Below are positions 18,490 through 22,322 of a stretch of 64,000 nucleotides of DNA, in pieces. How positions within the stretch are numbered: position 1 is the stretch's first letter; each line of letters starts with the position of its first letter. Both the position numbers and the translations under genes were made by a program. Origin of the DNA: Ignavibacteria bacterium (GTDB taxonomy: Bacteria > Bacteroidota > Ignavibacteria > Tepidaquicellales > Tepidaquicellaceae). The notes below the pieces were generated by a model that ran no database searches, was not told the origin of the DNA, and worked only from the letters and a program-made list of their open reading frames with translations. Location of the stretch: the NCBI GenBank assembly GCA_026417495.1, contig JAOADD010000040.1, forward strand, positions 1-64,000, written 5' to 3'.

Positions 18490-18712
18490 TTTAAAATATT
18501 ATATAAACATACATAAATAATTTTTTAATCTTAATGCATAATATCACTCCATAATGAAACTTTAGTTATCTTGACCTGCTTTTTAGGAAATTTTAAACAT
18601 AATTAGAAATAATCTAAATCAAACTTTATCTTTTAAACCATCTATAATTTCTACATTTAGCACATATATAAAAATAAAAAATTTCTTAAAAATAATTTAT
18701 TATACATCGCTA

Positions 18713-18741
18713 TTGAAAATACAGATTAAAAGTGCTAATTT
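18713..18741 (+). promoter_or_regulatory. Candidate promoter for the monoheme T9SS protein
   Basis: TTGAAA (18713-18718), 17-base spacer, TAATTT (18736-18741), about 40 bases before the ATG at 18782. Spacing is ideal but the -10 is weak and the region is A/T-rich, so a chance match is possible. Confidence 0.35.
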
Positions 18742-18781
18742 AACTGCAAAACTTTATTAACAAACCTAAACGCTTAACATT

Positions 18782-19576
18782 ATGGGAAAAAAACACATCA
18801 TAAATTCAAAGGTTTTCAGTACTCTTGTATTAATCGTTATTATTTTAACATCATCAGTTTTATTATTCGCAAATCCTGATGGATATACATTAAGAACGCT
18901 GAAGACCTCTACTTTAGGGTGTGGGGGATGCCATTCACAAGGAACAACAGTAACAGGATTTATAACAACACCTGATTCAGTCATTGTAGGACAAAGTTAT
19001 ACTTTTACTCTCACGATCAATAGTACATCAGGTTCAGGAAAATATGGGGTGGATATTGCAGCAAAATATGGCTCTCTTTATGTTATTTCTGGTTCTGGTT
19101 TGAAACTCCAAAACGGTGAATTAACTCATAGTTCTGCTTTAACTTATTCAAGTCCCAAGATAATTCAGTTTGGATATATCGCACCAACTACTCCAGGCAC
19201 TGATACAATATATGCTACATTAGATAGAGGATATACAGGAGCATGGAATTGGGCACCTAACAAAGGTATTAGGGTTGTTTCTGCTACTGGAATAATCAAT
19301 AATGAAACCCCTTCCAATTACTATCTATCTCAAAACTTTCCAAACCCATTTAATCCCATTACAAAAATAAATTACGGGCTTGCAAAATCTACTTTCGTAA
19401 ACATTTCTGTTTATAATATTCAAGGGGAAAAAGTAAAAGAGTTAATCAATGGTTTTCAATCTGCGGGAAATTACTTTGTACTTTTTGATGGAAGTGAATT
19501 ACCATCTGGTATATACTATTATAAAATTGTGACTTCTGAGTTTACTGAAATAAAAAAATTAGCACTTGTCAAGTAA
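18782..19576 (+). CDS. Exported monoheme c-type protein with T9SS sorting domain
   Basis: 264 residues: N-terminal signal/hydrophobic segment (about 12-30), a single haem c site Cys47-Cys50-His51 (CGGCH) just after it, a beta-sandwich domain (about 58-165, GFITTPDSVIVGQSYTFTLTI, reminiscent of Reeler-type domains), and a T9SS type A sorting domain (about 180-264, QNFPNPFNPITKI to a terminal LALVK). Family knowledge says such tails send proteins across the outer membrane, so this would be a haem protein at the cell surface. A strong terminator follows, and the multihaem cytochrome gene lies directly downstream on the same strand. Confidence 0.82.
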   Translation: MGKKHIINSKVFSTLVLIVIILTSSVLLFANPDGYTLRTLKTSTLGCGGCHSQGTTVTGFITTPDSVIVGQSYTFTLTINSTSGSGKYGVDIAAKYGSLYVISGSGLKLQNGELTHSSALTYSSPKIIQFGYIAPTTPGTDTIYATLDRGYTGAWNWAPNKGIRVVSATGIINNETPSNYYLSQNFPNPFNPITKINYGLAKSTFVNISVYNIQGEKVKELINGFQSAGNYFVLFDGSELPSGIYYYKIVTSEFTEIKKLALVK

Positions 19577-19602
19577 TCTTTCAAAAATATAAATTGTTTC
19601 AT

Positions 19603-19631
19603 GGGGTATATGTAAAATATACCCCTTTTTT
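19603..19631 (+). terminator. Rho-independent terminator
   Basis: GGGGTATA (19603-19610), 7-base loop, TATACCCC (19618-19625), then six Ts. It lies 27 bases after the monoheme gene and should separate it from the multihaem cytochrome transcript. Confidence 0.85.
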
Positions 19632-19714
19632 ATTTTACAAACTTTATTTATACACTAAGTATTTTTATTAAATAATCTTTTAATTATTATTACATAAAAA
19701 TAGAATATATAGTA

Positions 19715-21613
19715 TTGATAAGAAAAAGATACATATACCTTAGAATATATCTTCCTATTATAATCCTGATTATAAACGCATTTTTTCTTTTAGGTAAAAA
19801 TAATATCAAGTATGAAAGAAAAATTAATGATGAATGTCTTATTTGCCATGAAGATGAAAATCTTACTATGGAAAAAAATGGGAAACACATTTCATTATAT
19901 GTTAATGCTCAAAAATTTAAATCTTCTATTCACGGTATCTTATCCTGTAAAGATTGCCATATTAATTACAATCCTGAACAAATACCACATAATCCTGAAA
20001 AAGAGTTTGTAAATTGTTTAACTTGTCATGACAATATAACTAAAAACCGTAAAAATGTTCACAGTAGTATCAATTGCTTTGATTGCCATGATTTCCATTA
20101 TGTAGATTTTGCTAATAATTTGTTTGCAAAGCAGAATATTTTCTGTTTAAAATGTCACAATACTAAGGACTTACAATTTTTTAAATTTAGTACACATTCA
20201 AGAAATAATGTTAAATGCACAGACTGTCATAATACCAGTCACAATATCTTATCTTTAGAAAACAAAGATGATACTAAAGTTTGCGGAAGATGTCATTTAA
20301 AAGCCAAATCTGAATTTAATAATAGTATTCATAAGGTATTAAAGAATCACAAAGGTGAAAGAACAATTAGCTGTACTACTTGTCATGGGGTTCATAGAAT
20401 AACAAAAAATAAAAACACTATTGAATCTCAACTTTGTTTGAAATGTCATACTGATGAAAAGCGTTTCTCAGGTGAGGAAAAAGGATCTGCAAAATTCGTA
20501 TTAAGTTATAAAAACAGCATCCATAGTTTATTTAAAAACAAAGGTCTCCAATCAATTGGGTGCATTGATTGTCATGGATACCACACAGTTTATTCGTTAG
20601 ATGATACTACTAATTCTTCTGAAAGTTCCAAACAAATAAGCAAAATCTGTGGTAAATGTCATTCAAATATTCTTGAAGAGTATAAAAAGTCACAACACGG
20701 GATTGAATTGTTAAATAACAACCCAAAAGCACCAACCTGTATAAATTGTCACGGGGAACATAACATAAAATCAACATCAAAAATTAATCAGGTGGAAATT
20801 TGTTTAGGGTGTCACGGGAATCAGAAACTTCCGAATAAAAATATAAAAGGTGAAGATATATACATTTCTGATTACAAAAACAGTTACCACTATATTGTTT
20901 TAAAAGAGGGAAAGAATTCCGCTTCTTGTACAGACTGTCATGGAAGTCACTCTATGAAAAAATTTAATGATACAAACTCATTAATAAACGAAAGAAATAT
21001 TCAAAACACATGTGGCCAACCTTCCTGCCATTCAGAACAGTTAAGTTTATACAAAGGTAGTATTCATGAGAAAGCAATTACAGAGAAATTAAACTTTGAT
21101 TCACCTTCCTGCGTAGATTGTCATGGTAGCCATCAAATTATGAAAATAGATAATAACAATAATGAAATTGCAAGTCCAAAAGGAGTAATCCAACTTTGTT
21201 CAAATTGTCATAATTCAGTTGCAATAACGCAAAATAATAAATTAAAAATAGGTGTAGTAGAATCATTTATGAAAAGTTTTCACGGGCTTGCTATAAGAGG
21301 GGGTTCAAAAGTTGCTGCTGATTGTGGCAGTTGTCATCATTACCATAACATAAGACCTTCAAGCGATCCGAAATCAACTATTCACATAAATAATTTAGCT
21401 AAAACTTGTGGAAATTGTCATCCAGGAGTAGAGTCTGCCACTTTTTATGTTAAAATACATCTTTCAGAAAATTATACAGAGAACCCAATTCTTTTCTGGA
21501 TTGAAAAAATATATTTGATGCTAATAATAGTAATTATTGGTTCTATGTTCATTCACAATCTATTAGACCTAATAAGAAAGATAAGTCTAAAAAAAGTAAA
21601 AAATGACGAATAA
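19715..21613 (+). CDS. Membrane-tethered 19-haem c-type cytochrome
   Basis: 632 residues from a TTG start; no ATG is near. An N-terminal hydrophobic segment (about 6-28) serves as signal or anchor. I count 18 CXXCH haem sites, from Cys41 (CLICH) to Cys565 (CGNCH), plus one expanded CX4CH site (CGQPSCH, 433-439), giving 19 probable haems. Many are followed by the GxHxx pattern supplying distal histidines, as in NrfB/doubled-CXXCH-type cytochromes. A C-terminal membrane helix (about 596-618) is followed by a basic tail. It overlaps the next gene, a b-type cytochrome, by 11 bases. Together they look like a quinol-to-periplasm electron conduit. The terminal acceptor is not shown. Confidence 0.9.
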   Translation: MIRKRYIYLRIYLPIIILIINAFFLLGKNNIKYERKINDECLICHEDENLTMEKNGKHISLYVNAQKFKSSIHGILSCKDCHINYNPEQIPHNPEKEFVNCLTCHDNITKNRKNVHSSINCFDCHDFHYVDFANNLFAKQNIFCLKCHNTKDLQFFKFSTHSRNNVKCTDCHNTSHNILSLENKDDTKVCGRCHLKAKSEFNNSIHKVLKNHKGERTISCTTCHGVHRITKNKNTIESQLCLKCHTDEKRFSGEEKGSAKFVLSYKNSIHSLFKNKGLQSIGCIDCHGYHTVYSLDDTTNSSESSKQISKICGKCHSNILEEYKKSQHGIELLNNNPKAPTCINCHGEHNIKSTSKINQVEICLGCHGNQKLPNKNIKGEDIYISDYKNSYHYIVLKEGKNSASCTDCHGSHSMKKFNDTNSLINERNIQNTCGQPSCHSEQLSLYKGSIHEKAITEKLNFDSPSCVDCHGSHQIMKIDNNNNEIASPKGVIQLCSNCHNSVAITQNNKLKIGVVESFMKSFHGLAIRGGSKVAADCGSCHHYHNIRPSSDPKSTIHINNLAKTCGNCHPGVESATFYVKIHLSENYTENPILFWIEKIYLMLIIVIIGSMFIHNLLDLIRKISLKKVKNDE

Positions 21614-22295
21614 TAAGTCCAAGAGATATTTAAGAATGACTCTAAATGAGAGAATTCAACATTTCGTTCTCTTTATAAGCTTTACTGTACTAGCAATTAC
21701 GGGATTTGCTTTAAAGTTTCCTGAAGCATTCTGGGTAATATGGCTAAGGAATTTCTTTGGTGAAAATGCATTTGATCTCAGAGGGTTAGTACATAGGGTT
21801 GCTGCCTTGGTTTTAATTGCAGATTCCATATATCATTTATTCTACATAACTTTTACACAAAGAGGAAAAATGTTATTCAATGATTTGAAACTTAGAAAAT
21901 CAGATATTGCAGACTTAAAGAATAACATAAAATATCTTCTTTGGCTTTCAAAAGAAAAACCACGATTTGGCAGGTTTAGTTATATTGAAAAAGTTGAATA
22001 TTGGGCTCTAGTTTGGGGTACAGTAATTATGTCAATTACAGGAATTATTCTATGGTTTGAGAGTTTTTTCCTATCAATATTTTCAAATTTAGGAACCGAG
22101 ATTTCTACTATCATACATTTTTATGAAGCAATTCTTGCAACACTCGCAATATTGGTTTGGCATATTTACTTCGTAATTTTGAACCCTAATGTTTTTCCTA
22201 TGAATAAATCTTGGATTACAGGGTACATTACAAAGGAAGAAATGGAAAAGGAACACCCAGGAGAACTTGATTCTATTGAAAAATCTGAACTTTAG
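21603..22295 (+). CDS. Four-helix b-type cytochrome (quinol-oxidising membrane subunit)
   Basis: 230 residues with four membrane helices (about 17-45, 60-84, 132-157 and 166-192). Histidines are placed for two b haems: His near the start of helix 1 (RIQHFVLF), His in helix 2 (GLVHRVAAL and SIYHLFY) and His in helix 4 (IHFYEA and LVWHIYF). This is the pattern of formate dehydrogenase gamma/cytochrome b561-type subunits. Its start lies inside the end of the multihaem gene, so translation is coupled. Inferred role: take electrons from menaquinol and pass them to the 19-haem partner. Confidence 0.85.
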   Translation: MTNNKSKRYLRMTLNERIQHFVLFISFTVLAITGFALKFPEAFWVIWLRNFFGENAFDLRGLVHRVAALVLIADSIYHLFYITFTQRGKMLFNDLKLRKSDIADLKNNIKYLLWLSKEKPRFGRFSYIEKVEYWALVWGTVIMSITGIILWFESFFLSIFSNLGTEISTIIHFYEAILATLAILVWHIYFVILNPNVFPMNKSWITGYITKEEMEKEHPGELDSIEKSEL

Positions 22296-22322
22296 AATTC
22301 ATTATAAAAATATAAAAAATCC

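What the first reader, a model, noticed from the sequence alone, without database searches (positions are those of the whole stretch)
18782..22295. Surface monoheme protein, 19-haem cytochrome and b-type cytochrome: candidate extracellular electron conduit
Seen: a CXXCH protein with a T9SS sorting tail, then a doubly anchored 19-haem cytochrome whose 3' end overlaps by 11 bases a four-helix b-type cytochrome. Known: cytochrome-b/multihaem pairs move electrons from quinol to the periplasm, and T9SS tails place proteins outside the cell. Inferred: together they could carry electrons from menaquinol towards an external acceptor, with the monoheme protein as a surface relay. A haem c protein exported by T9SS is unusual because haem must be attached in the periplasm before export. 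A terminator separates the first gene, so joint use is not assured.
Basis: partly seen in the sequence, partly recalled or inferred. Interest (0 to 1): 0.72.

Follow-up and report, generated by a model that had tools for sequence, protein, structure and literature searches.

The report
Split quinol oxidase for extracellular respiration
Two of the three genes encode the two halves of a membrane machine, usually a single protein in more distant relatives, that probably takes electrons from the respiratory quinone pool and passes them along 19 haems towards an outer-membrane wire encoded elsewhere in the same genome; the third, a surface protein with one possible haem site, is a weakly supported partner.

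Summary
At 18782-22295 lie a CXXCH protein with a T9SS tail, a 19-haem cytochrome (18 CXXCH + one CX4CH) with two membrane helices, and a four-helix di-haem cytochrome b overlapping it by 11 bases; a terminator follows gene 1. The cytochrome pair is adjacent in 27/27 examined relatives of the order, with all 19 motifs conserved, and is one fused polypeptide in 51 of 52 more distant loci: the CbcL/MtrH/MtoC architecture, here split. In relatives it usually sits inside the known Ignavibacteria porin-cytochrome (pcc) cluster. In this genome that outer-membrane conduit is present but on another contig (G000:C7). Best reading: a menaquinol:multihaem oxidoreductase feeding an extracellular electron conduit (sequence evidence only). 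The three genes form one ~3.8-kb block absent from the same site in both congeners, so they behave as a unit. The monohaem 'relay' is weak: gene 1 belongs to NF041895 (choice_anch_V), an Ig-like domain present in 42/44 genomes, whose motif varies (C-X1-4-CH, mostly CXCH). A possible novelty is that family as an atypical surface haem protein, and T9SS-tailed 9-haem cytochromes in relatives.

The parts
18541..22317 (.). block present here and absent from the same site (between the ROK kinase gene and the 135-aa gene) in two congeners; boundaries approximate
   Evidence: In G037 the two flanking genes are 167 bp apart and in G038 they are also adjacent; intergenic flanks align on both sides in G037
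18782..19576 (+). gene 1: choice-of-anchor V (NF041895) Ig-like surface protein with one CXXCH and a T9SS type A tail
   Evidence: NF041895 E 5.4e-25; Por_Secre_tail E 1.2e-8; AlphaFold2 pLDDT 75 and Ig-like Foldseek matches
18920..18934 (+). CGGCH motif of gene 1 (possible haem c site)
   Evidence: in the family the spacing varies, CXCH in 72 of 98
19127..19129 (+). His116 (GELTH), possible distal ligand
   Evidence: His in 80 of 98 aligned family members of the order
19337..19561 (+). T9SS C-terminal sorting domain
   Evidence: Pfam PF18962, NCBIfam TIGR04183
19603..19625 (+). intrinsic terminator-like stem followed by T tract, between genes 1 and 2
   Evidence: one found, 1.2 expected in shuffles
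19715..21613 (+). gene 2: 19-haem cytochrome with N-terminal signal/anchor helix and C-terminal membrane helix
   Evidence: orthologues 44-52% identical
21011..21031 (+). atypical CX4CH haem motif (CGQPSCH)
   Evidence: both Cys and the His conserved in 28 of 28 orthologues
21482..21577 (+). C-terminal membrane helix of gene 2
   Evidence: hydropathy; long helix 594-631 in the model of the fused homologue
21554..21556 (+). His614 inside that helix; possible ligand or quinone-site residue
   Evidence: 28 of 28 in the order, 54 of 54 with the fused forms
21603..21613 (+). 11-base overlap of genes 2 and 3
21603..22295 (+). gene 3: four-helix di-haem cytochrome b (FdnI/HyaC type), likely quinol-binding subunit
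   Evidence: PF01292 E 1.6e-16; phmmer to 1KQF chain C E 3.1e-8
21660..21662 (+). b-haem ligand His20 (aligned with FdnI His18)
   Evidence: 28 of 28
21792..21794 (+). b-haem ligand His64 (aligned with FdnI His57)
22116..22118 (+). b-haem ligand His172 (aligned with FdnI His155)
22161..22163 (+). b-haem ligand His187 (aligned with FdnI His169)

Best explanation
Genes 2 and 3 are the two halves of a split CbcL/MtrH/MtoC-type menaquinol:multihaem cytochrome oxidoreductase of the inner membrane. Gene 3 would oxidise menaquinol through two b haems; its electrons would enter the 19-haem periplasmic wire of gene 2, held against it by gene 2's C-terminal helix. From there they would pass to the outer-membrane porin-cytochrome (pcc) conduit that this genome carries on contig C7: a 3-haem cytochrome c554-family carrier, a 440-aa predicted barrel, a 14-haem periplasmic cytochrome and a 6-haem putative lipoprotein. 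Shown: anatomy, ligand conservation, fusion in distant relatives, linkage to pcc in relatives, presence of all these parts in this genome. Inferred: direction of flow, menaquinol as donor, the docking steps and the external acceptor (Fe(III), an electrode or a partner cell). Gene 1 is predicted to be exported to the surface by T9SS and behaves as one presence/absence unit with the pair; whether it carries haem or joins the chain is open.
For: Pair adjacent in 27/27 loci of the order examined. All 19 haem motifs in 27-28 of 28 orthologues, with about 19 conserved further His, enough for bis-His ligation of every haem. In distant relatives the two are fused: 51 of 52 loci, 650-1001 aa, matching published CbcL/MtrH/MtoC homologues (416-1034 aa, 3-23 motifs; PMC6295460). 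Published CbcL has six membrane helices, two b haems and nine c haems (PMC9129911); the window pair has six hydrophobic segments, the first possibly a cleaved signal, and all four FdnI haem-ligand positions. The membrane part of a fused homologue's model matches E. coli FdnI, target TM-score 0.78. In relatives the pair lies among 17-haem, 14-haem and c554-type cytochromes and the barrel. The conduit genes of this genome are on C7; by haem number, size and order they resemble IALB_1837-1840 of the I. album pcc cluster (PMC4245776). Pair and barrel co-occur: 32/33 genomes with the pair against 4/11 without (Fisher p 6e-5, phylogeny not corrected). Presence/absence block.
Against: No expression, redox or growth data. 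The conduit is on another contig, and congeners G037 and G038 have the conduit but lack the pair, so conduit and pair can exist apart. The 17-haem protein and the T9SS-tailed 9-haem cytochrome of relatives were not found here. CbcL-type proteins also occur in Fe(II) oxidisers and are thought to run in either direction (PMC6295460). Similarity to Geobacter CbcL itself was not tested. The fused-protein model is only moderately confident (pLDDT 67.6).
Confidence: 0.68

Rival explanations
1. The pair oxidises menaquinol but hands electrons to a periplasmic acceptor (nitrite via NrfA, a peroxidase or another soluble reductase), not to the outside.
For: This genome has nrfH- and nrfA-like genes on C66 (4-motif 199-aa and 482-aa ORFs); congeners keep the conduit without the pair.
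Against: The nrfA-like gene already has an nrfH-like gene beside it; in relatives the pair sits with the barrel and the 14-haem cytochrome and co-occurs with the barrel.
Confidence: 0.17
2. The pathway runs inwards: electrons from an extracellular donor (Fe(II), a partner cell) enter through the conduit and the pair reduces menaquinone.
For: CbcL/MtrH/MtoC homologues are found in Fe(II) oxidisers and are proposed to catalyse both directions (PMC6295460).
Against: Melioribacter roseus, a cultured member of the Ignavibacteria, uses Fe(III) as acceptor (PMC3534657).
Confidence: 0.1
3. Gene 1 is a working surface haem relay at the end of this chain.
For: One shared presence/absence block; a homologue lies within 10 kb of the pair in 14 of 33 genomes against 0.52 expected, in at least four gene-tree lineages; Cys, Cys-His and a further His are conserved.
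Against: Domain present in 42/44 genomes, also without pair or conduit; motif spacing 1-4 residues, mostly CXCH; Ig-like matches, motif loop below pLDDT 50; a terminator-like stem separates it.
Confidence: 0.15
4. Gene 1 is an ordinary T9SS surface protein (adhesion or structural, Ig-like) that travels with the pair but takes no part in electron transfer.
For: Universality of the domain, variable motif, Ig-like model, at least 121 T9SS tails in the genome.
Against: Enriched beside the pair; both Cys and the His are invariant in 98 of 98 members, which needs a reason.
Confidence: 0.5

Closest known systems
CbcL (Geobacter sulfurreducens) and the CbcL/MtrH/MtoC family of quinol oxidases/quinone reductases
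   Same: Multihaem c-type domain plus FdnI-like di-haem cytochrome b, six membrane helices, published association with EET; distant relatives of the window pair have the fused architecture.
   Different: Two genes instead of one; 19 c haems against nine in CbcL; similarity to CbcL itself not tested.
CbcBA (G. sulfurreducens)
   Same: Inner-membrane cytochrome needed for low-potential Fe(III) reduction (PMC9129911); from memory also encoded as separate b- and c-type subunits.
   Different: Haem number differs (from memory, seven c haems); no sequence comparison made.
Porin-cytochrome (Pcc) cluster of Ignavibacterium album, IALB_1837-1840
   Same: Barrel, 14-haem 400-aa periplasmic cytochrome, outer-membrane cytochrome with atypical motif and a periplasmic cytochrome (PMC4245776); a matching set is on G000:C7.
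   Different: In this genome it is on a contig other than that of the quinol oxidase; the passages of that paper read here do not mention the 19-haem/cytochrome b pair.
FdnI, cytochrome b556 of E. coli formate dehydrogenase-N (1KQF chain C)
   Same: Fold and all four b-haem ligand positions.
   Different: No formate dehydrogenase subunits in this locus; an additional conserved His78 and a partner helix with His614.
choice-of-anchor V domain proteins (NF041895) / MXAN_6652 family
   Same: Gene 1 passes the curated cut-off of NF041895 (88 against 42 bits).
   Different: T9SS tail in place of MXYO-CTERM; CXXCH where most members in this order have CXCH.

Membership tests
CbcL/MtrH/MtoC quinol oxidoreductases | N-terminal multihaem domain with 3-23 CX2CH motifs | tested here: met
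   18 CX2CH plus one CX4CH
CbcL/MtrH/MtoC quinol oxidoreductases | FdnI-like di-haem b membrane domain | tested here: met
   PF01292, four FdnI ligand positions, Foldseek match to 1kqf_C for the fused homologue
CbcL/MtrH/MtoC quinol oxidoreductases | both domains in one polypeptide | tested here: not met
   Two genes with 11-base overlap here; fused in 51 of 52 distant loci. So called a split variant, not a member in the strict sense
CbcL/MtrH/MtoC quinol oxidoreductases | sequence relationship to Geobacter CbcL | not tested
CbcL/MtrH/MtoC quinol oxidoreductases | menaquinol oxidation | not testable with these tools
   needs biochemistry
Porin-cytochrome (Pcc) conduit (genes on G000:C7) | adjacent genes for outer-membrane barrel, periplasmic multihaem and outer-membrane multihaem cytochromes | tested here: inconclusive
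   Gene order and haem numbers fit, but the 440-aa protein has no Pfam match and its barrel fold and the protein locations were not tested
T9SS cargo | C-terminal sorting domain and a T9SS in the genome | tested here: met
   TIGR04183 over cut-off; SprA in the genome
choice_anch_V (NF041895) | score above curated cut-off | tested here: met
   88.2 bits against 42
monohaem c-type cytochrome (gene 1) | CXXCH in a recognised cytochrome c domain | tested here: not met
   CXXCH present, but no cytochrome family match and only Ig-like fold matches
monohaem c-type cytochrome (gene 1) | covalently bound haem | not testable with these tools
   CXXCH in the window, CXCH in 72 of 98 relatives
Nrf nitrite reductase module (for the pair) | NrfA or NrfB model over its cut-off | tested here: not met
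   NrfB models match far below cut-off; nrfHA-like genes are on C66

The most novel reading that the evidence does not exclude
The choice_anch_V family is an unrecognised class of surface haem protein: an Ig-like domain with a haem attached through Cys-X(1-4)-Cys-His of unusually variable spacing (most often CXCH), carried outside by T9SS after haem attachment, and repeatedly recruited next to the extracellular electron conduit of Ignavibacteria, where T9SS-tailed 9-haem cytochromes also occur.
Probability: 0.15. Interest if true: 0.75.

Novelty: new variant of a known kind. Interest (0 to 1): 0.45.

Why it matters
It gives the Ignavibacteria porin-cytochrome conduit, described in 2014, a specific inner-membrane electron entry: a two-gene, 19-haem form of a CbcL-type oxidoreductase. 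Because congeners with and without the pair both keep the conduit, the genus is a natural test of what the pair contributes. The side observations (a C-X1-4-CH surface family and T9SS-tailed multihaem cytochromes) make it testable whether T9SS exports haem proteins for respiration; no paper in the searched library combines the terms T9SS and multiheme.

Tried and rejected
Rejected: nitrite-reductase module (below cut-off; nrfHA-like genes elsewhere). The 17-haem and T9SS 9-haem proteins of relatives were searched in this genome and not found beyond short NrfH-like or tail matches. The L060 four-haem cytochrome on C20 is not part of the cluster. Horizontal transfer of the pair from a sampled relative: the gene tree places the window copy at the base of the order's copies (0.675 for the clade, 0.997 for the rest), so no donor is indicated; gain, relocation and loss in congeners stay open. 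Haem-to-haem distances could not be computed: the tool releases no coordinates and the model is of moderate confidence. Repeats at the block edges: nothing convincing. Literature on CXCH haem attachment, choice-of-anchor V and T9SS with multihaem cytochromes: nothing found.
Full report
WHAT IS THERE. Gene 1 (18782-19576) has one CXXCH and a T9SS type A tail; gene 2 (19715-21613, TTG start) has 18 CXXCH and one CX4CH and two hydrophobic segments; gene 3 (21603-22295) has four hydrophobic helices and overlaps gene 2 by 11 bases; a terminator-like stem lies at 19603-19625. The window lies on contig C12 of a 2.19-Mb, 99.8% complete genome in 76 contigs. Named records of the nearest relatives are mostly Ignavibacteria metagenome-assembled genomes.

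THE CYTOCHROME PAIR. Of 44 genomes of the order, 33 carry gene 2 as a full or partial orthologue. In all 27 loci I fetched, a gene 3 homologue follows directly on the same strand. Every haem motif, including CX4CH, is kept in 27-28 of 28 aligned orthologues (one is truncated), and about 19 further His are conserved in the periplasmic part, enough to give every haem a second axial His; one more, His614, lies in the C-terminal membrane helix. Gene 3 aligns with E. coli FdnI (1KQF chain C) with all four b-haem ligand positions matched: His20, 64, 172 and 187 (the ligand role of FdnI His18, 57, 155 and 169 is from my own knowledge).

FUSION. Of the 54 least similar loci kept in the genome-collection search (L121-L174), two belong to the order by their contigs (L133, L163). 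In 51 of the other 52 the two proteins form one open frame (650-1001 aa; some are cut by contig ends); in L166 the frame stops just inside the cytochrome b part. The records are named Ignavibacteria, Bacteroidetes, Kryptonia, Calditrichota, Eisenbacteria, Latescibacterota and Lentisphaerae. His614 is conserved in 54 of 54 rows. Fusion elsewhere is strong evidence that genes 2 and 3 make one complex. The architecture is that of CbcL/MtrH/MtoC (416-1034 aa, 3-23 motifs; PMC6295460); CbcL has six membrane helices, two b and nine c haems (PMC9129911). The window pair is therefore a split form. I did not compare it with CbcL itself, and the one-polypeptide feature is not met, so I call it a variant that probably works like CbcL.

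THE OUTER-MEMBRANE CONDUIT. In most relatives the pair lies in a cluster with an NtrC-type regulator, a 17-haem protein with a NrfH-like N-terminus, a c554-family carrier, a ~435-aa protein without family match that looks like an outer-membrane barrel, a 14-haem cytochrome and a 6-haem CxxxxCH/CxxCH protein. The last four resemble, by order, size and haem number, IALB_1840, 1839, 1838 and 1837, the published pcc cluster of I. album (PMC4245776). The window genome has these four on contig C7 next to ccmC-, ccmE- and ccmF-like genes. Pair and barrel co-occur (32 of 33 against 4 of 11; not corrected for relatedness). The 17-haem protein and the T9SS-tailed 9-haem cytochrome of relatives were not found here.

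THE BLOCK. In the two congeners G037 and G038, which have the conduit but not the pair, the ROK kinase gene and the 135-aa gene that flank genes 1-3 here are neighbours (167 bp apart in G037); the intergenic flanks align in G037. Genes 1-3 thus behave as one unit. The gene tree gives no donor, so whether this is a gain here or losses in the congeners is open.

GENE 1. It belongs to NF041895 (choice_anch_V), present in 42 of 44 genomes in 1-6 copies, including those without pair or conduit. Among 98 members in the order both Cys and the following His are invariant, but 72 have CXCH and 26 CXXCH; across a phylum sample 17 CXCH, 8 CXXCH and 8 CX3-4CH. A His in GELTH is found in 80 of 98. The model (pLDDT 75) matches only Ig-like structures among the best hits, with the motif loop unresolved. 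Copies lie within 10 kb of the pair in 14 of 33 genomes against 0.5 expected (approximate), in at least four lineages of the family tree, so the association is probably real but neither obligate nor explained. A second copy in this genome (C4) sits beside genes shared with congeners.

VERDICT. The pair is best read as a split CbcL-type menaquinol:cytochrome oxidoreductase serving the Ignavibacteria pcc conduit (0.68). The surface-relay role of gene 1 is weak (0.15). Everything rests on sequence; direction, donor and acceptor are inferred.

Noticed in passing
L037:3115-5253 (-), and similar ORFs in L031, L032, L041, L045, L048, L053, L054, L057: About 700-aa proteins with 8-9 CXXCH and a T9SS tail beside the pcc cluster in relatives: candidate T9SS-exported multihaem cytochromes; no paper in the library links T9SS and multiheme.
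   Followed up: partly
L065-L094, L175-L258, window 18920-18934: The choice_anch_V family keeps Cys...Cys-His but with one to four residues between the Cys; CXCH is the commonest form.
   Followed up: partly
L225:1165-3242 (G000:C66): NrfH-like (199 aa, 4 motifs) and NrfA-like (482 aa) genes: probable nitrite-to-ammonium reductase in the same genome.
   Followed up: no
L060:6255-8856 (G000:C20): Four-haem c554-like 468-aa protein next to a 391-aa protein with one CXXCH that looks like an outer-membrane protein; a possible separate redox unit.
   Followed up: no
L043:3272-12897: Relative G010 has three cytochrome b copies and several multihaem genes in a row, apparently duplications of the pair.
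   Followed up: no
window 21834-21836 (His78 of gene 3) and 21554-21556 (His614 of gene 2): Two extra membrane His conserved in nearly all split and fused forms (53 and 54 of 54); could bind a third b haem or line a quinone site.
   Followed up: partly
L219:5007-5768 (G000:C4): Second choice_anch_V gene of this genome; its neighbourhood is shared with both congeners, unlike the window copy.
   Followed up: partly
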